A stretch of 64,000 nucleotides of DNA from positions 1 to 64,000 of the forward strand of contig NZ_KQ949120.1 in the NCBI RefSeq assembly GCF_001514305.1, given 5' to 3'. The number at the start of each line of letters is the position of its first letter. Within the stretch, counting starts at the first letter, position 1. The stretch is from Streptomyces dysideae. Lineage in GTDB: Bacteria; Actinomycetota; Actinomycetes; Streptomycetales; Streptomycetaceae. Both the position numbers and the translations under genes were made by a program. The notes under the pieces were generated by a model. That model saw only the letters and a list, made by a program, of their open reading frames with translations. It ran no database searches and had not been told where the DNA came from. Positions 7,470 through 48,656 of the stretch are shown one piece after another.

Positions 7470-8047
7470 GCAGCGCACTCCAGGTCCTGCGCCGCGTGGG
7501 ATGAGCGGGGTGCGGTCGAGCGCAGGATGTGGGGATGCGTCTGGAGCCACTCGGCCAGCGCCGCTTCGGCAGCGTCGGGTATCAAGGCCACGTCTGCGTC
7601 GGTTTCCGCCTCTAGATGGCCGGTCGCGGGCACGGCCGGCTTGCCGGCCTGGTCGGCTTCGCGTACGGCTGCCGTCGGCTGGGTGAGGAGCTTGAGGGTG
7701 TGTTGGACGCGGGTGACGAAGTCGCTGGTAGGGCTCGGGTATTGGTGGGTGCGGGCCCAGCGGGCCGCCACGTCGTACACGCCGGCCAGATCCTCGCCTG
7801 CTTCGGTGAGCCGGTAGCGGGTCGGTGCTTGGGGGTCGGCGTGCACTAGGCCGAGGTCGCGGGCGACCTCGATGGCGTAGCGCAGCTGGTTGACGGTGAG
7901 GTCGCCGAAGGCGCTCTGCAGGCTGCCGCGTCGGTGGCTGATGGGGCCGTTGTCGTCGATCTCGCTGACCAGCCGGATCAGGGACGGCAGAGACAGGGCG
8001 CTGATCGCCCGGCAGGTGTGCGGGTGGTTGAGCATTGTGCTGGTCAC
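7466..8047 (-). CDS. Winged-helix transcriptional regulator
   Basis: 193 aa from GTG 8047 overlapping the TGA of the HxlR gene (GTGA); ATG 8035 is an alternative start. A single winged-helix domain is seen at about residues 15-85 (FGDLTVNQLRYAIEVARDLG, then the wing PTRYRLTEAGEDL), resembling one half of the double-domain HxlR-like protein encoded just upstream. The C-terminal half is helical and acidic. It probably regulates the MFS/ATP-grasp cassette together with its neighbour. Confidence 0.75.
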   Translation of the reverse strand: MTSTMLNHPHTCRAISALSLPSLIRLVSEIDDNGPISHRRGSLQSAFGDLTVNQLRYAIEVARDLGLVHADPQAPTRYRLTEAGEDLAGVYDVAARWARTHQYPSPTSDFVTRVQHTLKLLTQPTAAVREADQAGKPAVPATGHLEAETDADVALIPDAAEAALAEWLQTHPHILRSTAPRSSHAAQDLECAA

Positions 8048-8931
8048 CGGCGCGGGCCTCCTGCCGGGGAGACCTGGAGAGGACGGGTGGGTATCTGGTG
8101 GGAGAAGAGGTCGCCGGTCCGCCACGCCGGAGCAGTGGCCGATGGGGCGGCGGGGCCTGCGGGGGCCGGGAGACGGGTCTGTGTGGTCAGCCACGGTCCG
8201 GACCGGGTCCGGGCGGAGGCGGGTGTCTGCCCCCACAGCGGGTGGGCGCCGGCGGTGCCGAGCGGGCGTCCGGCCGCCCAGGCCGAGAGGCTCTGGAAAA
8301 CGGGCGCGAGGGCCCGGCCGGTGGCGGTGAGCTGATACTCGCCGGCGCCCGCGGCCGTAGAGCGGTTGATGACCAGGCCGTCGGCGACCAGCCGGTCCAG
8401 CGGCAGGTAGACGGCGGGCAACAGGTAGGTAGGCATGGCCTCGGCGGCCAGAGCCTTCGCACTCGCCGCCCCTCGCGCCTTCAACGCCCACAGGATCGGG
8501 GTGGCGTGCCGCGGGCTGATCAGGGCAATGGTGTCCTCGGCGTTCTGGGCCGCGGCGATCGGCTCGGGCTCCGTCTCTCCCGTGCGCGCGTTGCGCACGA
8601 ACTCCTTCTCCAGGTGTTCGTCCCCCCAGGCAGCGATGACGGTCAGGACGGGCAGCAGCTCGGCGGCACGTGCCGTCAGGCCGTACGTGACGTGATTGCG
8701 GGCGTGTTCCGTGCGCTCGATCAGGCCCGAGTCGGTGAGCTTGCGCAGCCTCGGGTTGATCTGGCCTGACTGCAGCCACGACATCTGGGACTGGATCTCC
8801 TTGTAGCGCAGCGGCTGTTCGGCGAGCGTCATCAGCGTCCACACGCTCCAGCGCGGGGCGAGCATCTCCAGTGCCTCGGTGACGCGTGCGAGATCAGTAC
8901 GGGTGGTACGGGACAGACCGGTGGCGGCCAA
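8044..8931 (-). CDS. HxlR-family regulator with tandem winged-helix domains
   Basis: 295 aa, TTG 8931 start, 8 nt after GGAG. The first domain (about residues 12-100) is a clear HxlR winged helix: LAPRWSVWTLMTL, RYKEIQSQM, INPRLRKLTDSGLIERTEH. A second, more diverged copy (about residues 135-220) reads ILWALKARGAASAKAL and GEYQLTATGRAL. The tail is disordered and ends SPAGGPRR. HxlR proteins sense small molecules or redox state and bind as dimers; the tandem form could fill both half-sites alone. It heads the run of regulator, MFS, ligase and HAD genes. Confidence 0.85.
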   Translation of the reverse strand: MAATGLSRTTRTDLARVTEALEMLAPRWSVWTLMTLAEQPLRYKEIQSQMSWLQSGQINPRLRKLTDSGLIERTEHARNHVTYGLTARAAELLPVLTVIAAWGDEHLEKEFVRNARTGETEPEPIAAAQNAEDTIALISPRHATPILWALKARGAASAKALAAEAMPTYLLPAVYLPLDRLVADGLVINRSTAAGAGEYQLTATGRALAPVFQSLSAWAAGRPLGTAGAHPLWGQTPASARTRSGPWLTTQTRLPAPAGPAAPSATAPAWRTGDLFSHQIPTRPLQVSPAGGPRR

Positions 8932-10850: not shown

Positions 10851-10886
10851 ATCCCCGGTTTCGGTAACCGGGCATGTGCTGCTATA
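10851..10886 (-). promoter_or_regulatory. Promoter and palindromic operator, copy 1
   Basis: Read on the minus strand: a -10-like hexamer TATAGC (10886-10881), exactly 8 nt, then half-site CCCGGTT, spacer ACCGA and half-site AACCGGGGAT (10872-10851). The operator covers the expected transcription start, as a repressor site would. It lies 89 bp upstream of the SH3-protein gene. Four further copies with the same orientation and spacing occur in the window. Confidence 0.75.
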
Positions 10887-14752: not shown

Positions 14753-14789
14753 GATCCCCGGTTTCGGTAACCGGGACTTGCGTGCTACA
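14753..14789 (-). promoter_or_regulatory. Promoter and palindromic operator, copy 2
   Basis: On the minus strand: -10-like TGTAGC (14789-14784), 8 nt, then CCCGGTT, spacer ACCGA and AACCGGGGATC (14775-14753). It lies 62 bp upstream of the DUF4913 start and points toward it. The architecture matches copy 1. Confidence 0.75.
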
Positions 14790-35389: not shown

Positions 35390-36595
35390 TTGACCACACC
35401 CGGAACGCCTACCAGTCCAGCGCGCACCAAGGGCGGCGAACTACGGGCCAAGGTGGCCCGACTGCTGGCCGACCGGCCGGCGGACACGCTCACCATCGGG
35501 GACATGGTCAGGCAGCTGGGCCACTCCCACGGCGCCGTCCGCAACGCCGCCCTCACCCTGGTGCGACGCGGCGAGGCCGACCAAGGCGGAACCGGACAAC
35601 CGGAGTTCCGCGCGAACGCGAAAACCGCCGCAGCCGCGCAGACCGCTGTGATCAGCCCACCGGGCACCCACTCTCCCCGCGCCCAGGCGGCCACGGCCCG
35701 CACCACCACTCCCGCAGCAGCCACGCCCAGGCAGACCGGCCCGATCCGCCGCGCGGGGGGCCAGCTCTACCACCCCCGGGAGCTGGCCGATCTGCCCGAC
35801 GTCGAGGCGTTGAATCGCCTGCGCGACGCCGACGTGCCGGTGCTGCTCTACGGCCCTCCGGGCACCGGCAAGACGAGTCTGGTCGAGGCGGCGTTCCCGG
35901 ACCTGCTCACCGTCGCCGGTGACGGCGACACCACGGTCGGCGACTTGATCGGCGAGTACACACAGGACGACGCGGGAGCCTACGTCTTCCAGTACGGTCC
36001 GCTGGTCACCGCGATGACCGAGGGCCGCGCCCTGCTGATCGACGATGCCACCCTGATCTCACCGAAGGTCCTGGCGGCGCTGTATCCCGCGATGGACGGG
36101 CGCAGGCAGATCCAGGTCAAGGCCCACAAGGGCGAGACCATCAAGGCCGAGCCCGGCTTCTACGTGGTGGCGGGCCACAATCCCGGCGTCCACGGCGCGG
36201 TTCTGACGGAGGCGCTCGCGAGCCGGTTCAGCGTGCAGATCCAGATCGGCACGGACTATGACCTCGCCCTGGCGCTGAGGATCGATGCCCGGGTGGTCCG
36301 GGTCGCCCGACACCTCGCCCACCAGGTCGAACTCGGCGAGCTGGGCTGGGCCCCCCAACTGCGGGAACTGCTCAGCTACCAGAAGACCGAGGCCGTCCTC
36401 GGCACCAAAGCCGCGCTCGCGAACCTCGTCGGCATCGCTCCTCTGGAGGATCGCGACGCCGTCGCCGCCGCCGTCATCAAGGCTGTCGGCGTCAAGAAGA
36501 TCGCTCCCCTCACCCTCGGCAAGCAGCTCCCCGCCTCGGCCGCCCGGCAGCCCCCGGGCAGCACCGGCTCCGCACACCGGGGCCGCTCGCGATGA
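35390..36595 (+). CDS. MoxR-type AAA+ ATPase with N-terminal winged-helix segment
   Basis: 401 aa, TTG 35390, 8 nt after GAAGGA. A short N-terminal winged helix (TIGDMVRQLGHSHGAVRNAA) and a Pro/Thr linker lead to the AAA+ core: Walker A GPPGTGKTSL (Lys161), Walker B ALLIDDATLI, sensor 1 VVAGHNPG and a sensor-2-like LASRFSVQIQI. Walker B has Asp where MoxR proteins normally carry the catalytic Glu, so hydrolysis may be slow. Family members remodel client proteins, usually with a VWA partner. That partner is encoded next, with ATGA coupling. The tail ends AHRGRSR. Confidence 0.88.
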   Translation: MTTPGTPTSPARTKGGELRAKVARLLADRPADTLTIGDMVRQLGHSHGAVRNAALTLVRRGEADQGGTGQPEFRANAKTAAAAQTAVISPPGTHSPRAQAATARTTTPAAATPRQTGPIRRAGGQLYHPRELADLPDVEALNRLRDADVPVLLYGPPGTGKTSLVEAAFPDLLTVAGDGDTTVGDLIGEYTQDDAGAYVFQYGPLVTAMTEGRALLIDDATLISPKVLAALYPAMDGRRQIQVKAHKGETIKAEPGFYVVAGHNPGVHGAVLTEALASRFSVQIQIGTDYDLALALRIDARVVRVARHLAHQVELGELGWAPQLRELLSYQKTEAVLGTKAALANLVGIAPLEDRDAVAAAVIKAVGVKKIAPLTLGKQLPASAARQPPGSTGSAHRGRSR

Positions 36596-38391
36596 GCGCC
36601 CACCACCACGTCCAGTCCCCCGCCACCACGCCGGACGACGACGCCGACCTCGCTCGATGGGACGACGACGGCGCCCCGCCCGCGCAACCCCGTTCCTCCC
36701 CGCACTTGTGGCTGCGCGTGGGAGCCGAACTCGGCGACCGGCTGGTCGACCTCTCCGGCCGCCAGGACCTCCTCGTCACCTGCCGCCCCGGCACGCGCAG
36801 CGGCGCACCGGCCGCGTTCTTCCCCACGCTGGGCGAGGTCGAGTTCGACGCCGGCCTGTTCGCCCCGCTCCAGCCCCACGAGATCCATCCGCGGATCGTG
36901 GGTGACGAGGAGCGGTATCCCGCCGCCTGGGGAGTGTTCGTCCACGAGGCCGCGCACGCGGCCCACTCCGTCTGGACACAGCCTGCCGGAGCGAACCCCC
37001 GTGTCGTCGAGGCCGCGCTCCTGCTGGAGGAGAGCCGTGTCGAAGGCGCACACCTGATCACGCGGCCCACGGACCGCACATACCTGCGCACCAGTGCCCG
37101 AACCCTGGTCATGCCCGACATCGCCCACCCCACCCTCCAGGGCATCGAGCACGCCGCCGCCGTGGCGGCCCTGGTCCTCGGCCGCCGTGACGTCGGCATC
37201 CTGGACGCCGGCGAGACCCGGGCCGTCGCCGATCTGTGCGAAAAGGTGCTGGGCGCAGACCTGCTGGCCACACTCACCCGCATCTGGACCGCAGCCCACC
37301 AGTGCGCCGACCACGACGCCACGACCATGCTCGCGCACGCTCAAAAATGGTGCGACGCTCTGGACACCGCGGCCCCCGCCCTGCCCGTGCCGGAGAACCT
37401 CACCGATCTGCTGTCCGGCGCCGTGGGGGTCGTCATGGACAGCACGGCAGCCACCGACGCCGCCGACCTCGCGGCACAGGCCGCAGCGACCAACGCCATG
37501 GCCGCGCAGTCCAAGGCGCAGGCTCAGGACCGCGCCCAGCGGGCCGGCCAGCGACGCAAAGCCGCCGCCACCGCCAAGTCGGTCTTCAACGCCCGTGGCA
37601 CCACCGTCACCCCCGACGGCACACCGGCGCCCTACGGCAACCCGGTCACCGGCACCCGCAGGCCCACCGCCGCCGAGCAGAGTGCCGCCGCGCGCCTGAG
37701 CCGCGCCCTGCGTGCCGCCGCCTACCGCGAACGGACCGAGGAGCGGACCACCAGCCCCACCCCGCCCGGCCGCCTCAACATGCGCGCGGCCCTCGCCCGC
37801 GACGCTCAGCGCGCGGCCGGGTCGGTCCCCACCGCGGAACCGTTCACCCACACCCGCCGCCGGAACTCCCCCACCCCACCGCTGCGTGTGGGTATCGCCG
37901 TCGACGTCTCCGGCTCCATGCGTGCCGCCTGCGCGCCCGTCGCGTCCGCTGCCTGGATCGTGGCACGCGCAGCAGCCCTGACCGACCCCGACTCCCGTAC
38001 CGCCACCATCGCCTATGACAGGCACCTGACCGCATTGACCCGGCCCACCCACCGAGCACCAGAGCGCGTGACGACGTTCGATGCCACCGGCGGCCACCAC
38101 AACCTCGGCGACGCCATCGACGCACTCGACCACGGCCTCGAACTCAGCCGACCCGGCGCCGGCCGCCTCCTCGTGATCGTCACCGACGCCCGGTACGGCA
38201 GCGACGAAACCGCTCAAGCCGTCACCCGCGTCAAGCAGCTCACGACCGCCGGCTGCGCCGTACTCCAGCTCACCCTCACCGCGAAGTCCCACCACTTGCC
38301 GGGGACCACCTTGCTGCACCTGCCCCAGCCCTCCAGCGCTCCCGTCGCCATCGCCACGGCGGCCACAGACGCCATCCGCAGGACACGCTGA
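36592..38391 (+). CDS. HExxH metallopeptidase-like and VWA domain protein, MoxR partner
   Basis: 599 aa, ATG 36592 overlapping the MoxR stop. An N-terminal zinc-peptidase-like part has HEAAHAAHS (His118, Glu119, His122) with a downstream LLLEESRVEGAHL that may give the third ligand. The middle is a basic coiled coil (QAQDRAQRAGQRRKAAATAK). The C-terminal VWA domain has an intact MIDAS: DVSGSM (Asp438), with later Thr and Asp positions (TFDATGGHHNLGDAI, VIVTDARYG). The pair resembles RavA-ViaA-like or cobalt-chelatase-like chaperone pairs; the substrate is unknown. Confidence 0.85.
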   Translation: MSAHHHVQSPATTPDDDADLARWDDDGAPPAQPRSSPHLWLRVGAELGDRLVDLSGRQDLLVTCRPGTRSGAPAAFFPTLGEVEFDAGLFAPLQPHEIHPRIVGDEERYPAAWGVFVHEAAHAAHSVWTQPAGANPRVVEAALLLEESRVEGAHLITRPTDRTYLRTSARTLVMPDIAHPTLQGIEHAAAVAALVLGRRDVGILDAGETRAVADLCEKVLGADLLATLTRIWTAAHQCADHDATTMLAHAQKWCDALDTAAPALPVPENLTDLLSGAVGVVMDSTAATDAADLAAQAAATNAMAAQSKAQAQDRAQRAGQRRKAAATAKSVFNARGTTVTPDGTPAPYGNPVTGTRRPTAAEQSAAARLSRALRAAAYRERTEERTTSPTPPGRLNMRAALARDAQRAAGSVPTAEPFTHTRRRNSPTPPLRVGIAVDVSGSMRAACAPVASAAWIVARAAALTDPDSRTATIAYDRHLTALTRPTHRAPERVTTFDATGGHHNLGDAIDALDHGLELSRPGAGRLLVIVTDARYGSDETAQAVTRVKQLTTAGCAVLQLTLTAKSHHLPGTTLLHLPQPSSAPVAIATAATDAIRRTR

Positions 38392-38536: not shown

Positions 38537-39091
38537 TTGAAGCCCCAGACCAGCAGCCCGACCTCGAACGTAACGCCCATCAAACGGAATTCCCCGGGGG
38601 TCCAGAAGACCTGGACCGTCGTCCACGCCTGTGGACACGAGATCACGCACGACCTGTCCGACCGTCCCGCCGACCAGCGTGCCGGATTCGCCCGCTGGCT
38701 CACCGAACGCGACTGCACCGACTGCTGGAAGGCCGCCCGTGACGGCGACAGTGCCAGCAAGGAGGAGTGGCTCGCCGCCCGGCGCACCGAAGAGCAGCAG
38801 GCCGCCGCTCAGTGGGCCGAGCAGTTCGACATGCCGCCGCTGGAGGGCACCGAACGCGCCCAAGGCTGGGGCGAGCGCTGCCGCCATCAGCTGGCCACCC
38901 GCGCGTATGCCGCCCTGGTCACCGAGGGCACCTGGGACGAGACCGACTGGACGGTGCTGGAGGAAAAGATCCGCACCGTCACCCGGGCCGGATGGTGGAT
39001 CGACCAGCGCGATGCCGAGGGCACCGATCTGCCCGAACTCCTCGACGCCGCCACCGAACACGACCGGAGCACCGAGAACCCCTTCCGGTAG
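38537..39091 (+). CDS. Hypothetical element protein with Cys/His site, 184 aa
   Basis: TTG 38537 start after AAAGG. The N-terminal part has a possible metal site (VVHACGHEITHDLSDRPAD, then ERDCTDCWKAA: Cys, His, His, Cys, Cys). The C-terminal half is helical and acidic (QLATRAYAALVTEGTWDETD, VLEEKIRTVTRAGWWIDQRD). No family is recognised. It ends TENPFR. It is the last gene before operator copy 5. Confidence 0.62.
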   Translation: MKPQTSSPTSNVTPIKRNSPGVQKTWTVVHACGHEITHDLSDRPADQRAGFARWLTERDCTDCWKAARDGDSASKEEWLAARRTEEQQAAAQWAEQFDMPPLEGTERAQGWGERCRHQLATRAYAALVTEGTWDETDWTVLEEKIRTVTRAGWWIDQRDAEGTDLPELLDAATEHDRSTENPFR

Positions 39092-39103
39092 CCGACCAGC
39101 GGT

Positions 39104-39140
39104 TATACCCGACGATCCCCGGTTACCGAAACCGGGGATC
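39104..39140 (+). promoter_or_regulatory. Promoter and perfect palindromic operator, copy 5
   Basis: -10-like TATACC (39104-39109), 8 nt, then the perfect palindrome: half-site GATCCCCGGTT, spacer ACCGA, half-site AACCGGGGATC (39114-39140). It lies 57 bp upstream of GTG 39198 and points toward the large 39-55 kb gene block. It is the most complete copy and defines the consensus. Confidence 0.8.
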
Positions 39141-39197
39141 CGCCGGAGCATTGAGCCTCCCACCGCCATCCGTGCCGCTCGTGGAAGGACCCATGCT

Positions 39198-39635
39198 GTG
39201 CCCGACGCTCCCGGCCCCTCGCACATACCCGCCGCCTGGACGCCGTCCCTGGAGACGCTCACCGCCAGGCGGGACATCACCCACGCCCATTTCGTCCCGG
39301 GCGACACCGTCGTGATCCCCACCGGCGTCGCCGACGGCCATCTGTCGGGCGACGTCATGACCATCGTCGCCCCCTCCTGGCACACACCGACGGACGAGGA
39401 CGGCTGGCGGCTGCGCAATCCCAAGGGCGGCGAGCGCACCTTCATCACCGCCCACCCCCGCTACATGATCCACCTCTCCCGTCACTGCCCCGACTGCCTG
39501 ATCTACCGCCGGGCCCTGGAGGACTACGTCCTGCCCAAGGTGCCCTCGGCCAGTGGGTCCTTCGACTGCGGCTGGTACTCGCTCACCCACCTCAACCAGC
39601 TCGTCCACCGCGCCGACGCCCGAGGTGGCCGGTGA
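39198..39635 (+). CDS. Hypothetical element protein, 145 aa
   Basis: GTG 39198, 9 nt after GGAAGGA. A beta-rich domain (FVPGDTVVIPTGVADGHLSG, DVMTIVAPSW) is followed by a possible zinc site (HLSRHCPDCLIYRRALEDYV, CGWY). It is the first gene under operator copy 5 and overlaps the next GTG, so it is probably a partner of the relaxase-like protein. It ends ADARGGR. Confidence 0.62.
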   Translation: MPDAPGPSHIPAAWTPSLETLTARRDITHAHFVPGDTVVIPTGVADGHLSGDVMTIVAPSWHTPTDEDGWRLRNPKGGERTFITAHPRYMIHLSRHCPDCLIYRRALEDYVLPKVPSASGSFDCGWYSLTHLNQLVHRADARGGR

Positions 39636-40378
39636 CCCTCCAGCGGATCCGGACGTCCAAGGACTGGGCGGACCACCCGGACGCGCCGTCGTGGGAGCAT
39701 CCCCGCGCCAAGGGCCCGCAGAAGGAACGCTTCGCCATCTGGCACGCCGACGTGCGTCTGGCCCCCCGCGACCGCCAGTTCACCGGCCCGGAATGGTCCG
39801 AGATCGCGCACCGCCTGGCCCGCGCCGCGGGTACCGCCGCCCCCGGCGACACCAAGGGCTGCCGCTGGATCGCCCTCCAGGCTCAGCCCCGGCGGCTCGA
39901 CCTGATCGCCAACCTCATTCGCCCCGACGGCACCTGGACCGTCCAGGCCAGCTTGCTCCTCCGGATGGCGGCGGAATGCCGACTCCTGGAGACCGCCCTC
40001 AGCCTCCTTGCGCCCCTGCCCGCCCGGTCGTCGCGGCGCACCGCCGCTCCCCCGGCCGCCGTGCGCGCGGCTGTCGGGACGACGGGGCAGCTCGGCGAGC
40101 TGTTGCACCAGCTCGCCGACGAGACCACCGGGCCGCTGGCCACCGCGCGCGGGCTCGTCGAGCACGCGGCGCACCGCCTCGGCGCCCTTCCCCACCCCGA
40201 TGGCCTGGTCACAGAACACCAGTTGGAGTGGATCGCTCGCCGCCTGTACGGCATCCAGCAGGACCTGGACAGCGTTGCCGCGGACCTGGCCGCCCCATTC
40301 CGCCCGCCCGTCCCCGCCCCCGGGGCGTCTGTCCCCCGTTCCACGTCCGCGTCCGCTCGTACTCGATCAACTCCTTAG
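39632..40378 (+). CDS. Relaxase-like protein lacking the HUH histidines
   Basis: 248 aa, GTG 39632 overlapping the upstream TGA. Residues 35-120 match the start of Streptomyces MobA/VirD2-type relaxases: FAIWHADVRLAPRDRQFTGP, WSEIAHRLARAAG, GDTKGCRWIALQ. In active enzymes the next motif carries the metal-binding His cluster (RHADDHIHIV-like); here it reads AQPRRLDLIANLIRPDG, with no histidines. The protein is therefore likely inactive as a nickase. It may be a regulator or an oriT-binding accessory. The tail ends ARTRSTP. No active relaxase is seen in the window. Confidence 0.68.
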   Translation: MTLQRIRTSKDWADHPDAPSWEHPRAKGPQKERFAIWHADVRLAPRDRQFTGPEWSEIAHRLARAAGTAAPGDTKGCRWIALQAQPRRLDLIANLIRPDGTWTVQASLLLRMAAECRLLETALSLLAPLPARSSRRTAAPPAAVRAAVGTTGQLGELLHQLADETTGPLATARGLVEHAAHRLGALPHPDGLVTEHQLEWIARRLYGIQQDLDSVAADLAAPFRPPVPAPGASVPRSTSASARTRSTP

Positions 40379-40382
40379 AAAG

Positions 40383-40627
40383 TTGCCGCTCTTTACCGAC
40401 CGCCGCGAAGCGTACGAGCTTCCGCTCGGCGTCCAGGTCGCACATCTCGCCGAGCGCCTACGCCAGGCCATCACCACGGACGAAGCCACTGATGTCCTCA
40501 TCGAGTTACCGCCACCCACGACGGCATCCTGACCGCCCTGGGCGACGTACTCGCCACTACTGCCGACTTCTACGAACACCTCGGCCACCCCGCCGACTGG
40601 CACACCACCAGCGGCTGCAGATCGTCT
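40383..40627 (+). pseudogene. Broken helical accessory gene
   Basis: TTG 40383 opens PLFTDRREAYELPLGVQVAH and LAERLRQAITTDEATDVLIE, stopping at TGA 40532. The protein-like sequence continues in another frame as THDGILTALGDVLATTADFY and EHLGHPADWHTT to about 40627. A frameshift near 40508 explains both parts. The region has the composition of the neighbouring accessory genes. Confidence 0.55.
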
Positions 40628-40839
40628 GAACCGACCTGGCCCACAGGCGCGCCGACCTCGCCGACCGGCATCAACACCCCGGGCGGCGGCCGTTGCACCG
40701 TCGAGACCGGGCCGGGCGAGAGGGAAGCCTCCGCCGTCTGCTCCTGCCCGCCGCCCCACATCCCCACCACACTGCATCCCCTCCCCGCCGTGCCGACTCC
40801 CACCGGCCGCCGAAGATGCCCCATCCCTTGAGGAAACTC

Positions 40840-41589
40840 TTGCCCGCCACCGATGACTCTCTCGCCTCCTTCGCTGCCGTCCTCGCCGGCGAACTGCCCG
40901 GCCAATGGAGCAGCGAGTACCACCCCGACCGCGGCGGCTCCACCGACCACGGCGAACTGACCGCCGAGGTCTGGGACCTGGACCAGGTCGCCGCCGCTCT
41001 CGCCGAGCACTCCCTCGACCACTGCGCGGTTCTGACCCGGCGCGCGGACGGCACCCGGCTGTTCGTCATGGACCGCAACGACGACGGCTTCCTCATCTCC
41101 GCCATGGCCCCCAACGACCTGCCCACCGAGGCGTACCGCGGGGTCCGCGAGCCCGACGGCATCGCCGTCGTCGCGAACCCCTTCCGCGCCGCCAAGCACG
41201 TCTCGCTGCGCCTGCTGCCCCGCTACGAGCAAGCCCTCGCCCAGGTGCGGGACAACGCCGCCCGCCTCTCCGCCCAGGCGACCGACCAGCAGGAGCGTGT
41301 GGTGCTGACCTGGTCCGGCGAGGACATCGTGACCGCCCGGCCCGACCGCGCAGACATCGCCAAGGCCCTTACCGAGCACGGCTTCGTGTCCGACGAGGCA
41401 CGCAACCTGTTCGTGCTGTCCGACGGCGATTCAGCCCAGGTGGCGGCATCCGTCCGCGCCGTCGGCCACCGGCTGTCCGCGCTGGGCCTCGGCGTCCTGC
41501 TCTCCCGCCCGACAGGCCGGCCCGCGCCGGACATCACCCACGCCCAGCCTCCCGCCAGGCCAGTTCCGGCCTCTCACCGCACGCGGTGA
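40840..41589 (+). CDS. LPGxW-family element protein (paralogue 4)
   Basis: 249 aa from TTG 40840, after GAGGAAA. Family marks: VLAGELPGQW, EVWDLDQVAAALAEHSLD, RLFVMDRNDDGFLISAMAP, EPDGIAVVANPFRAAKHV, LLPRYEQALAQVRDNA. A second small domain (ERVVLTWSGEDIVTARPDRA, FVSDEARNLFVLSDGDSAQV) follows, as in paralogue 1. The tail ends PASHRTR. It is coupled to the next gene by a GTGA overlap. Confidence 0.7.
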   Translation: MPATDDSLASFAAVLAGELPGQWSSEYHPDRGGSTDHGELTAEVWDLDQVAAALAEHSLDHCAVLTRRADGTRLFVMDRNDDGFLISAMAPNDLPTEAYRGVREPDGIAVVANPFRAAKHVSLRLLPRYEQALAQVRDNAARLSAQATDQQERVVLTWSGEDIVTARPDRADIAKALTEHGFVSDEARNLFVLSDGDSAQVAASVRAVGHRLSALGLGVLLSRPTGRPAPDITHAQPPARPVPASHRTR

Positions 41590-46868: not shown

Positions 46869-48656
46869 CTGTCCGATAACTCCGCCAACAGCACCGACGG
46901 CTACGACATCGTCCTCCGGCTCCTCCTGGCAGTCCTCGCCGTCTTCGTTCCCCTCTCCCACCTCGCCTGGCTGTCCGGCAACGTCACCGCCTACCTCACT
47001 GAGGGTGCCTGGGCTCCCTACCAGCCGACCGCTGCCCTGCTCCACCCCGACCAGCTCTGGCCCAAGGCCGGAGAAACGTCCCTGCTCATCGGGGCCCGCA
47101 TCGTCCCGACTGTCGTCCTCCTCGCGCTCGGTGCCACGGCCGGAGCCCTGTGGGCCCGCCACAAGAACCGCAGCGGCGGCCGGAAGAAGATCAACGGAAT
47201 GGCCAAACCGCGGGACATCGAGCCGCTCATGGCCAAAGCGATCACCGCCAAGGCCCGCTCCCTGCGCCCAAGTCTCAAGAACGCCAAACACGTTGAAGCC
47301 CGGGACACGGGCATCCTCCTCGGCAACCTTCAGGGGACCCGTCATGAGGTGCGCATGGGGTACGAGGACGTCGCCGTCGCCATCATGGCGCCGCGCTCCG
47401 GCAAGACCACCAGCCTCGCCATCCCCTCCATCCTCAACGCCCCCGGCCCGGTGCTCCTGACCTCGAACAAGGCCGCAGGCGACGCCTTCACCGCCACATA
47501 CGACGCCCGCGCGAGCGTAGGGCAGGTGTGGGCCATGGACCCACAGCAGATCGCGCACACTGCCCGCGAGATGTGGTGGAACCCCCTTGCCGACGCCAAG
47601 ACCCTCGACGGAGCGGGCAGACTGGCCGGCCACTTCCTCGCCGCCTCGGTGGACGCCTCCCAACAGGGCGACTTCTGGTCCAAGGCTGGCAGCAACATCC
47701 TGTCGCAGCTGTTCCTCGCCGCAGCGCTCGACGACCGCGCGATCACGGACGTCATGCAGTGGCTGGCCTTCCCCGCTGACCGCACACCGCTGGACATCCT
47801 CCGGGACCACGGTTTCACTGCCGTCGCCGCGCAGCTCAAAGGCACCGTGGAAGGCCCGCCCGAGACTCGCGACGGCATCTACGAAACCGCCCGCCAGTAC
47901 GCCGCCGCGCTGCTCAACAGCGAGATCGCCGCATGGGTCACACCACAGAAGGATGTCCCCGAGTTCCGGCCGACGGAGTTCGTCACCTCCACCGACACGC
48001 TCTACCTGCTCTCGAAGGACGGCGGAGGAGGAGCCTCAGCGTTGATCGCCGCATGTGCGGACTCCGTGATGCGGGCCGCGACTGCTCAGGCCGAACGCGC
48101 CGGCGGACGGCTCGACCCGCCGATGCTCGCGATCCTCGACGAGGCCGCCAACGTCTGCAAGATCAGCGACCTGCCCGACCTGTACTCCCACCTCGGCAGC
48201 CGAGGCATCATCCCGATCACCATCCTCCAGTCTTACCGCCAGGGCCAGAAAGTCTGGGGCGACGCGGGCATGGACGCCATGTGGTCCGCCTCCACCGTCA
48301 AGGTCATCGGCTCCGGCATCGACGACCCTGACTTCGCCGACAAGCTGAGTCGGCTGATCGGCGACCACGACGTCGAGACCACCTCCACCTCCCACTCCGA
48401 GTCCGGCAAGTCCACCTCCGTATCGATGCGACAGGAGCGGATCCTGCCCGCCGACGCGATCCGCGCCCTGCCCAAGGGCACCGCGCTGTGCTTCGCCACC
48501 GGCATGCGCGCCGCGATGCTCGACCTGCGCCCCTGGTACCTCGAGCCCGGCGCCGACGAGCTATCAGCCGCCTCCGCCCGCGCCTCAAAGGCCATCACCG
48601 CCCGCGCCGTAGCCAAGGCAGCGCCGAATCAGAGCGACTACCGGCCCGCGGCCTAG
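46869..48656 (+). CDS. VirD4/TraD-like conjugative coupling ATPase, CTG start
   Basis: 595 aa from CTG 46869, 8 nt after AGGA. This start restores two N-terminal membrane helices (IVLRLLLAVLAVFVPLSHLA and ARIVPTVVLLALGATAGALW) that a start at ATG 47199 would remove, and VirD4 proteins need them. The ATPase core has Walker A MAPRSGKTTSLAIP (Lys179), Walker B LAILDEAANV (Asp424, Glu425) and a TraM/TraG-like C-terminus (IPITILQSYRQGQKVWGDAG). It delivers DNA-protein substrates to the type IV channel. No Arg tail. Confidence 0.9.
   Translation: MSDNSANSTDGYDIVLRLLLAVLAVFVPLSHLAWLSGNVTAYLTEGAWAPYQPTAALLHPDQLWPKAGETSLLIGARIVPTVVLLALGATAGALWARHKNRSGGRKKINGMAKPRDIEPLMAKAITAKARSLRPSLKNAKHVEARDTGILLGNLQGTRHEVRMGYEDVAVAIMAPRSGKTTSLAIPSILNAPGPVLLTSNKAAGDAFTATYDARASVGQVWAMDPQQIAHTAREMWWNPLADAKTLDGAGRLAGHFLAASVDASQQGDFWSKAGSNILSQLFLAAALDDRAITDVMQWLAFPADRTPLDILRDHGFTAVAAQLKGTVEGPPETRDGIYETARQYAAALLNSEIAAWVTPQKDVPEFRPTEFVTSTDTLYLLSKDGGGGASALIAACADSVMRAATAQAERAGGRLDPPMLAILDEAANVCKISDLPDLYSHLGSRGIIPITILQSYRQGQKVWGDAGMDAMWSASTVKVIGSGIDDPDFADKLSRLIGDHDVETTSTSHSESGKSTSVSMRQERILPADAIRALPKGTALCFATGMRAAMLDLRPWYLEPGADELSAASARASKAITARAVAKAAPNQSDYRPAA

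What the first reader, a model, noticed from the sequence alone, without database searches (positions are those of the whole stretch)
39632..40378. Relaxase-like protein that has lost its HUH motif
The N-terminal half follows Streptomyces MobA-type relaxases up to GCRWIALQ, then shows RRLDLIANLI where the metal-binding histidines should be. A dead relaxase at the head of an operon under the perfect operator suggests a DNA-binding regulator or a transfer-immunity protein.
Basis: partly seen in the sequence, partly recalled or inferred. Interest (0 to 1): 0.58.

Follow-up and report, generated by a model that had tools for sequence, protein, structure and literature searches.

The report
Conserved dead relaxase in Streptomyces elements
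Many mobile DNA elements of Streptomyces carry, besides a normal DNA-nicking transfer enzyme, a second gene that keeps that enzyme's shape but has lost its active site and is still kept by evolution, which suggests a new non-cutting helper or brake in bacterial DNA transfer.

Summary
Window 39632-40378 encodes a protein homologous to Streptomyces Mob relaxases whose HUH site (RHADDHIHI in actives) reads QAQPRRLDLI; the catalytic-tyrosine motif is gone too. It is not a one-off: one scan gave 65 loci with an orthologue, 64 titled Streptomyces or a close genus, usually near a TraG coupling-protein gene (58 of 59 testable). Among 58 aligned copies none has HxH, the former catalytic site is unusually well conserved, and 29 of 29 independent pairs show purifying selection. 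An AlphaFold model of a full-length orthologue matches solved HUH relaxases. An active relaxase of one clade lies 32-87 kb upstream on the same strand in 29 of 34 elements with enough contig. So this is a conserved pseudo-relaxase of a conjugative element, not random decay. The window's own copy lacks about 50 N-terminal residues and may be failing. The 'perfect operator' is real (64 of 65 loci) but precedes the gene before the relaxase; an element-encoded HxlR-type protein is the likelier binder. The acidic core argues against DNA binding. Best reading: a non-catalytic, protein-binding accessory of DNA transfer (adaptor or brake between relaxase and coupling protein). Function is inferred, not shown.

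The parts
39632..40378 (+). pseudo-relaxase (N-terminally truncated copy): residual relaxase core ~residues 1-125, linker, helical C-terminal domain
39878..39916 (+). former HUH (motif III) site, now QAQPRRLDLIANL
40055..40291 (+). conserved C-terminal helical domain (three helices, pLDDT about 90 in the window model)
39198..39635 (+). preceding small gene (g39183; GTG start inferred), its stop overlaps the pseudo-relaxase start; 51-68% identical in 65 of 65 relatives
39114..39140 (+). perfect palindromic operator GATCCCCGGTT-ACCGA-AACCGGGGATC
39102..39161 (+). 60-bp conserved promoter-like element: -10-like ATA box, operator, TCCGGA..ATTG leader
38537..39091 (+). conserved 184-aa gene upstream of the operator (64 of 65 relatives)
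36592..38391 (+). VWA-domain protein (weak Pfam hit, below cut-off); found in 26 of 65 relatives' stretches, 85-98% identical
35390..36595 (+). MoxR-like AAA ATPase (AAA_5); found in 24 of 65 relatives' stretches, 88-98% identical
40816..41589 (+). downstream gene (g40816) whose divergence tracks the pseudo-relaxase most closely (r = 0.87, 29 elements)
47199..48656 (+). TraG/VirD4-type coupling protein (T4CP)
8044..8931 (-). HxlR-type helix-turn-helix protein with two matched stretches, candidate operator-binding regulator
14757..14775 (-). second operator copy, upstream of the DUF4913 gene
10854..10872 (-). third operator copy, upstream of a small secreted-looking gene (by eye)

Best explanation
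A catalytically dead paralogue of a Mob-type relaxase has become a fixed, co-regulated part of a family of Streptomyces T4SS conjugative elements. Shown here: homology; relaxase fold (orthologue model); loss of both HUH and tyrosine motifs; replacement of the catalytic site by a new, highly conserved motif; purifying selection; and a usual co-occurrence with an intact relaxase of one clade in the same element. Inferred: it no longer cuts DNA and acts through protein contacts, most likely as an adaptor or brake where the active relaxase meets the TraG coupling protein, together with the products of adjacent genes. Its transcription is probably switched by the element's HxlR-type regulator through the palindrome. 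The copy in this window lacks the first beta-strand region and may already be impaired.
For: Homology to active relaxases; one clade, support 100/99. VIA-align: the ten best rows for the orthologue model (mean pLDDT 82.6) are HUH relaxases, Z 9.4-8.6: MobA, MobM, pCU1 TraI, NES. HxH absent in 58 of 58; residues 129-142 have majority frequency 0.91 against 0.72 overall and 0.76 in the core. dN/dS below 1 in 29 of 29 independent pairs, 0.20-0.68. TraG (84-95% identical) within about 10 kb in 11 of the first 12 loci and in 58 of the 59 later loci with at least 9 kb held downstream (62-95%). Active partner on the same strand, 32-87 kb upstream, in 29 of 34 elements with >=70 kb of contig; 36 of 36 verified partners keep HIH (35 match RHA[DE]DHIH[IL], L097 reads RHAGDHIHI); with those of the first eight elements and the window genome's own they form one side of a branch against 17 other actives (45 rows, local support 0.99). 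Acidic core. Divergence closely shared with neighbours g40816 (r 0.87) and g39183 (0.72).
Against: No specific co-evolution with the active relaxase: r 0.56, lower than that of neighbours g39183 (0.67) and g40816 (0.63) with the partner; partial r 0.11, p 0.046 after three controls. The gene is dispensable: two elements with TraG 82-83% identical (G035, G060) and six with TraG 68-71% (G040, G067, G086, G066, G072, G010) have no relaxase-like ORF in the stretch read. Five of 34 elements have the gene and no partner within 150 kb (L074, L080, L087, L089, L124); G012 and G019 likewise. The partner clade also occurs in genomes without the gene. Some copies are broken or shortened (L123, L125; G055 keeps only the C-terminal part). 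The tree warns of long branches within and next to the family. No interaction or transfer data exist.
Confidence: 0.45

Rival explanations
1. DNA-binding transcription regulator derived from a relaxase: the pseudo-relaxase itself binds the palindrome and controls its own operon and one or two other promoters.
For: Operator present in 64 of 65 loci and not found near g39183 in four related elements that lack the gene or have a very divergent copy (G035, G060, G014, G083). Operator class changes once on its tree (57 rows), and distal operator copies match the class in trans.
Against: Acidic core, median net -11. The element encodes an HxlR HTH protein with one class change on its tree (37 rows), against two for the pseudo-relaxase in a nearly identical set (39 rows). 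Class also changes once on trees of several other linked genes. L101 has the gene but no operator was found. HUH relaxases recognise single-stranded or hairpin DNA next to a nick site (established knowledge).
Confidence: 0.12
2. Transfer-immunity or exclusion protein: the dead relaxase made in a recipient blocks entry or establishment of a sister element, for instance by sitting on incoming DNA, relaxase or TraG.
For: Fast divergence (mean distance 0.41 against 0.08 for TraG, 29 elements) fits a specificity factor; some genomes hold two such elements (L073 and L094 in S. scabiei; two loci in G057).
Against: Neighbour g40816 diverges as fast (0.44); genomes with two elements show that coexistence is possible. 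Transmembrane or secretion features were not looked for.
Confidence: 0.15
3. Accessory that binds oriT or the transferred strand inside the relaxosome (non-catalytic DNA-binding subunit).
For: Relaxase fold of an orthologue, same element as an active relaxase.
Against: Acidic core; the gene lies on the TraG side, while a NikA/MobC-like gene sits beside the active relaxase in G083, the one element checked; no extra correlation with the partner.
Confidence: 0.14
4. Non-functional remnant of a second relaxase on its way out.
For: Window copy lacks about 50 N-terminal residues and has a core charge of +5, outside the range -11..+1 of 58 relatives; several broken copies elsewhere; some related elements lack the gene.
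Against: dN/dS 0.20-0.68 in 29 of 29 independent pairs; new motif 91% conserved; window core dN/dS 0.39-0.45 against two near relatives, C-terminal part 0.25-0.26.
Confidence: 0.08

Closest known systems
Streptomyces Mob relaxases (PF03432, MobA/VirD2-like), e.g. window genome C2:679792-680733
   Same: Shared core columns: VWHxxVR, PxDR, EW, GI..GD..CRWxA, AxLxRxDG, ExRxIE; same fold in the orthologue model
   Different: No HUH, no tyrosine motif; 55 of 58 copies are 270-330 aa against open frames mostly of 540-830 aa in actives; own C-terminal helical domain; gene on the TraG side of the element
MobA of R1162 (2ns6), MobM of pMV158 (4lvj), NES (4ht4), TraI of pCU1 (3l6t), TrwC (1omh)
   Same: Best solved-structure matches of the orthologue model (VIA-align Z 8.1-9.4, rmsd 3.8-4.6, 145-171 residues)
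   Different: Active HUH nucleases (established knowledge); 8-10% sequence identity
MOB-HEN relaxases (MbeA of ColE1; recalled, from no call)
   Same: Altered HUH signature within a relaxase fold
   Different: As recalled, MbeA keeps metal ligands, a nucleophile and activity; here the three histidines and the tyrosine motif are all gone
Type 2 pseudo-relaxases found here (L043-L046, L126)
   Same: Same place upstream of TraG, relaxase core, degraded HUH (RNQxRxxHVVAT or RNQAxGLDIVAT)
   Different: Separate clades; the T2b form keeps the tyrosine motif; two tandem genes in L044 and L045; TraG only about 70% identical
MobK of pIGRK (PMC8152469: title and start of abstract seen only)
   Same: Described as a novel-type relaxase, i.e. 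departs from the standard kind
   Different: Described as functioning in mobilisation; nothing here suggests catalysis

Membership tests
HUH relaxase, MobA/VirD2 type (PF03432) | Sequence homology to relaxase core | tested here: met
   Best E 1e-18 to a long-frame relaxase with intact HUH among 150 genomes; residue-level alignment; tree
HUH relaxase, MobA/VirD2 type (PF03432) | Relaxase fold | tested here: met
   Orthologue L061 model: ten best VIA-align rows are relaxases, Z 9.4-8.6; next row an unrelated helical bundle at 8.4 matching only the C-terminal helices. Foldseek top rows MobM, but E 0.15. For the window's truncated model: inconclusive
HUH relaxase, MobA/VirD2 type (PF03432) | HUH metal-binding histidines (motif III) | tested here: not met
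   0 of 58 have HxH; two divergent copies outside that set read LHIV (G083) and LEIL (G014)
HUH relaxase, MobA/VirD2 type (PF03432) | Catalytic tyrosine motif I | tested here: not met
   YLYGPG region replaced in the 15 rows aligned; best Tyr column only 52% in 58 sequences; segment absent in the window copy
HUH relaxase, MobA/VirD2 type (PF03432) | Pfam gathering score for PF03432 | tested here: not met
   Window: no family at E<=1; 2 of 38 members match, best E 0.001
HUH relaxase, MobA/VirD2 type (PF03432) | Site-specific nicking of oriT | not testable with these tools
   needs biochemistry; oriT not mapped
Helix-turn-helix transcription regulator | HTH domain | tested here: not met
   No HTH family for the window protein nor among the families matched by 38 members
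T4SS conjugative element (ICE type) | Coupling protein plus relaxase in one element | tested here: met
T4SS conjugative element (ICE type) | Integrase and att sites | not tested
   A tyrosine-integrase-like ORF at contig 69.2-70.6 kb seen by eye only; att sites not sought

The most novel reading that the evidence does not exclude
Conjugative elements of Streptomyces have domesticated a dead copy of their relaxase as a control subunit of transfer: an acidic relaxase mimic that docks where the active relaxase meets TraG (or pairs with the relaxase), through the new conserved QAxPGRLDL site, and sets when or which DNA is sent, while the element's HxlR repressor sets its level. A separate set of degraded relaxases at the same place in sister elements (type 2) would make this a recurrent strategy.
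Probability: 0.3. Interest if true: 0.8.

Novelty: new variant of a known kind. Interest (0 to 1): 0.6.

Why it matters
Relaxases are treated as the defining enzymes of conjugation and are used to type mobile elements. A conserved relaxase fold without any catalytic residue, kept near the coupling protein, would be a pseudo-enzyme layer in conjugation that profile-based surveys miss (Pfam's relaxase model matches 2 of 38 members). It gives a concrete, testable entry into how large Streptomyces T4SS elements control transfer.

Tried and rejected
Rejected: sequencing error or chance ORF (65 orthologous loci). Rejected: plain decay of the family. Weakened: pseudo-relaxase as the operator binder. 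Led nowhere: Pfam on the window protein; solved structures by sequence gave only designed or coiled-coil peptides for the C-terminal helices; viral contigs none; PLSDB plasmids gave 50 records, none covering 80% of the query, and the four I opened (H1, H16, H19, H24) keep HIH. C58 of the window genome was tried as the partner contig and dropped, because its relaxase lies outside the partner clade. Mirror-tree test for pseudo-relaxase and active partner: no excess. The window model's structure search listed helical bundles and unrelated rows, no relaxase. No palindrome like the operator was found upstream of g39183 in G083, G014, G035, G060 (a different 7-bp one in G014).

Rows dropped: 7 of the 65 type-1 loci (L100, L110, L120, L122, L123, L124, L125: no start where expected, cut by contig end, or interrupted) and L126 (type 2) were left out of the 58-row statistics; A2/A3 used 37 of the 65 plus the window. 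One search was given 50 of the 65 loci; the 15 left out were loci on short contigs plus L070, L078, L094 and L118, which lie on long ones. L094 lies in the same chromosome as L073 and was added by place, making 51 elements. The partner table was copied by hand (rows of about 59% identity and up); weaker rows were left out. L068, L088 and L106 had same-coordinate candidates; for L068 and L088 the contig lengths differ and for L106 it was not checked, so none of the three is counted. The tree left out the window row and one type-2 row, and warned of long branches (T1L117 with T1L041; T2a with T1). The operator-class counts use FastTree trees without support values, and poorly varying genes (VWA, MoxR) resolve badly there. 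The mirror-tree matrices hold 29 of 36 elements.

Literature: (inactive, vestigial or paralogous relaxase wordings) found 0 papers in the held library; one search listed 12 of 13, none read. So 'not in print' means only not found by these searches.

Full report
WHAT IS THERE. The window is part of contig C46 (74,416 bp) of a genome of 10.77 Mb in 152 contigs whose relatives by locus titles are Streptomyces. ORF 39632-40378 encodes 248 aa. No Pfam family matches it at E<=1, but a direct search of 150 related genomes finds it homologous to long-frame Mob relaxases. In a residue-level alignment the shared core is unmistakable (VWHxxVR, PxDR, EW, GI, GD, CRWxA, AxLxR, DG), and the active site is not: actives read RHADDHIHIVAT, the window reads QAQPRRLDLIANL. 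The tyrosine-motif segment YLYGPG is also missing.

A FAMILY, NOT AN ACCIDENT. Among 150 relatives the first search gave 12 further loci with wide-ranging matches at 37-63% identity. A collection scan gave 66 loci, 65 of this type; titles read Streptomyces except one Actinacidiphila and one 'Actinobacteria bacterium'. The constant neighbours are the two small genes before it (g38537 in 64 of 65, g39183 in 65 of 65), g40816 (61 of 65) and TraG (58 of 59 with at least 9 kb held downstream; 62-95% identical). The MoxR and VWA genes that stand upstream in the window are found in only 24 and 26 of 65 stretches (VWA in 23 of 58 with at least 9 kb held upstream), there 85-98% identical. The pseudo-relaxase itself is 41-60% identical to the window's. 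Orthologues (55 of 58 between 270 and 330 aa) start with about 50 residues (VIPRxHxR...) that resemble the N-terminus of actives; the window copy lacks these.

DEAD BUT CONSERVED. In 58 aligned sequences none has HxH; residues 129-142, where the histidines should be, have a mean majority frequency of 0.91 against 0.72 for the whole protein and 0.76 for the core. The commonest reading is VQAQPGRLDLI (21 of 58). The best tyrosine column reaches only 52%. dN/dS (Nei-Gojobori) has median 0.44 over 1,638 of 1,653 pairs; 29 of 29 independent pairs lie between 0.20 and 0.68; medians are core 0.37, C-terminal domain 0.38, N-terminus 0.45, linker 0.60. A gene drifting without function would approach 1.

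FOLD. For the AlphaFold2 model of orthologue L061 (mean pLDDT 82.6, pTM 0.61) Foldseek's top rows are MobM, but at E 0.15, not significant. With VIA-align the ten best rows are all HUH relaxases (MobA 2ns6 Z 9.4, 145 residues, 3.8 A; MobM; pCU1 TraI; NES); the next row, a designed helical bundle at Z 8.4, matches only the C-terminal helices. The margin is modest. The window's own truncated protein modelled poorly in the core (mean pLDDT 71.8) and no relaxase is among its 50 listed rows.

AN ACTIVE PARTNER IN THE SAME ELEMENT. Of ten copies lying on long contigs in the first set (G013, G019, two in G057, G079, G047, G015, G012, G038, G083), eight have an active relaxase 37-108 kb upstream on the same strand; G012 and G019 do not. 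These eight form one clade (96/98). In the named set, of 51 elements examined, 34 have at least 70 kb of contig upstream; 29 of these 34 have such a relaxase 32-87 kb upstream on the same strand, contig identity checked by length; counting shorter contigs, 36 of 51. All 36 keep HIH. With the first eight and the window genome's own, these 45 form one side of a branch against 17 other active relaxases (FastTree local support 0.99). In G083 the partner is preceded by a NikA/MobC-like gene and a WhiB gene. The window genome's own partner-type relaxase is at C2:679792-680733 (78% identical to G013's), has an intact HUH and lies about 12 kb from the end of C2. Gene order in G057 and G013 places the C2 end before the window start, which would make about 52 kb; the junction itself is not assembled. 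Relaxases as similar also occur in genomes without the pseudo-relaxase, so the partner clade is not exclusive to these elements.

IT IS DISPENSABLE IN SOME. Of 17 loci with TraG at least 82% identical, 13 have a pseudo-relaxase nearby, counting the window and a divergent copy in G014; two have none in the stretch read (G035, G060), in G012 TraG and pseudo-relaxase lie apart, and one contig is too short (G033). Of 12 loci with near-complete TraG 68-72% identical, five have their own degraded relaxases (type 2: G000 C6, G057, G023, G084, G070; tandem in G057 and G023; motifs RNQxRxxHVVAT and RNQAxGLDIVAT), six have no relaxase-like ORF in the stretch read (G040, G067, G086, G066, G072, G010), and in G028 too little contig lies upstream.

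THE OPERATOR. The perfect palindrome at 39114-39140 is real and conserved: 64 of 65 loci have it (up to one mismatch) within 3.5 kb upstream, against a background of 0.047 per 3.5 kb (14 sites in 1.05 Mb). It sits in a 60-bp conserved element with a -10-like box just before it (55 distinct sites). Two half-site classes exist (C or G outside the CCGG core: 22 and 42 loci). In regions 15-34 kb upstream, 38 of 39 elements with a proximal site have distal copies. In 31 every one has the proximal class; two more (L092, L094) have one such copy plus an unrelated one-mismatch match; five (L038, L112, L113, L115, L123) have a copy with mixed arms; none has a copy fully of the other class. A trans-acting protein tied to the element probably reads it. 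On gene trees the class changes once for an HxlR HTH protein at window 8044-8931 and for four genes near it, once (57 rows) or twice (39 rows) for the pseudo-relaxase, 1-2 times for g39183 and g40816, 2-3 for g38537, 3 for the partner, 2-5 for TraG and 5-8 for VWA. HxlR is the simplest candidate regulator, and the pseudo-relaxase operon one of its targets. This is inference from linkage; no binding was tested.

HOW IT MOST LIKELY WORKS. The core is acidic (net -11, pI 5.3) compared with the partner's first 200 residues (-3, pI 6.4), so protein contact is likelier than DNA contact. The gene sits on the TraG side of the element, away from the active relaxase. Its divergence tracks its neighbour g40816 (r 0.87) and g39183 (0.72), not the partner in particular (0.56) (29 elements). 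I therefore favour a non-catalytic adaptor or brake acting at the coupling step, at 0.45, with exclusion, oriT accessory and DNA-binding regulator as rivals.

THE WINDOW COPY ITSELF. It lacks about 50 N-terminal residues, and its core charge is +5 where 58 relatives range from -11 to +1. Its dN/dS against two near relatives is still 0.39-0.45 (core) and 0.25-0.26 (C-terminal part). It may be a recent, possibly failing, variant; conclusions about function rest on the orthologues.

KNOWN LITERATURE. I saw passages (term search) of PMC3218068 (actinobacterial ICE survey limited to MOBF relaxases), PMC9513070 (Streptomyces ICEs detected by relaxase, coupling protein and VirB4 profiles) and PMC10711302; none of these passages mentions a dead relaxase. 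Targeted searches found no paper.

Noticed in passing
window 10854, 14757, 39118; L235-L274: Element-wide operator regulon with two half-site classes that mostly match between promoters some 15-34 kb apart; a natural data set for co-evolution of an HxlR-type regulator and its operators.
   Followed up: partly
L044:9141-11834, L045:9202-11176; also L043, L046, L126: Sister elements carry other degraded relaxases at the same place, one form keeping the tyrosine motif with a single His, in L044 and L045 preceded by a second with neither; the window genome has a copy on C6.
   Followed up: partly
window 40379-40815: The stretch after the pseudo-relaxase looks like a decayed coding fragment (read by eye).
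   Followed up: no
window 35390-38391: MoxR/VWA pair is 85-98% identical where present (24 and 26 of 65 stretches) although its neighbours are far less alike, and its trees show little or no link to the operator class (they also resolve badly): strong constraint or frequent exchange.
   Followed up: partly
13 of 64 loci, e.g. L063, L064, L065, L066, L068, L088, L097, L098: Operator lies 1.26-1.30 kb instead of mostly about 0.5 kb upstream of the pseudo-relaxase; in L063 and L064 an extra ORF fills the gap.
   Followed up: partly
L050:13219 (contig C46 ~67.6 kb): A G-class operator-like site on the contig of a C-class element, beside a nuclease-like and an integrase-like ORF (by eye); homologous site in G057 (L134:5948).
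   Followed up: partly
G060 (L169): TraG 82% identical with the two small genes next to it, but no relaxase match in that genome.
   Followed up: no
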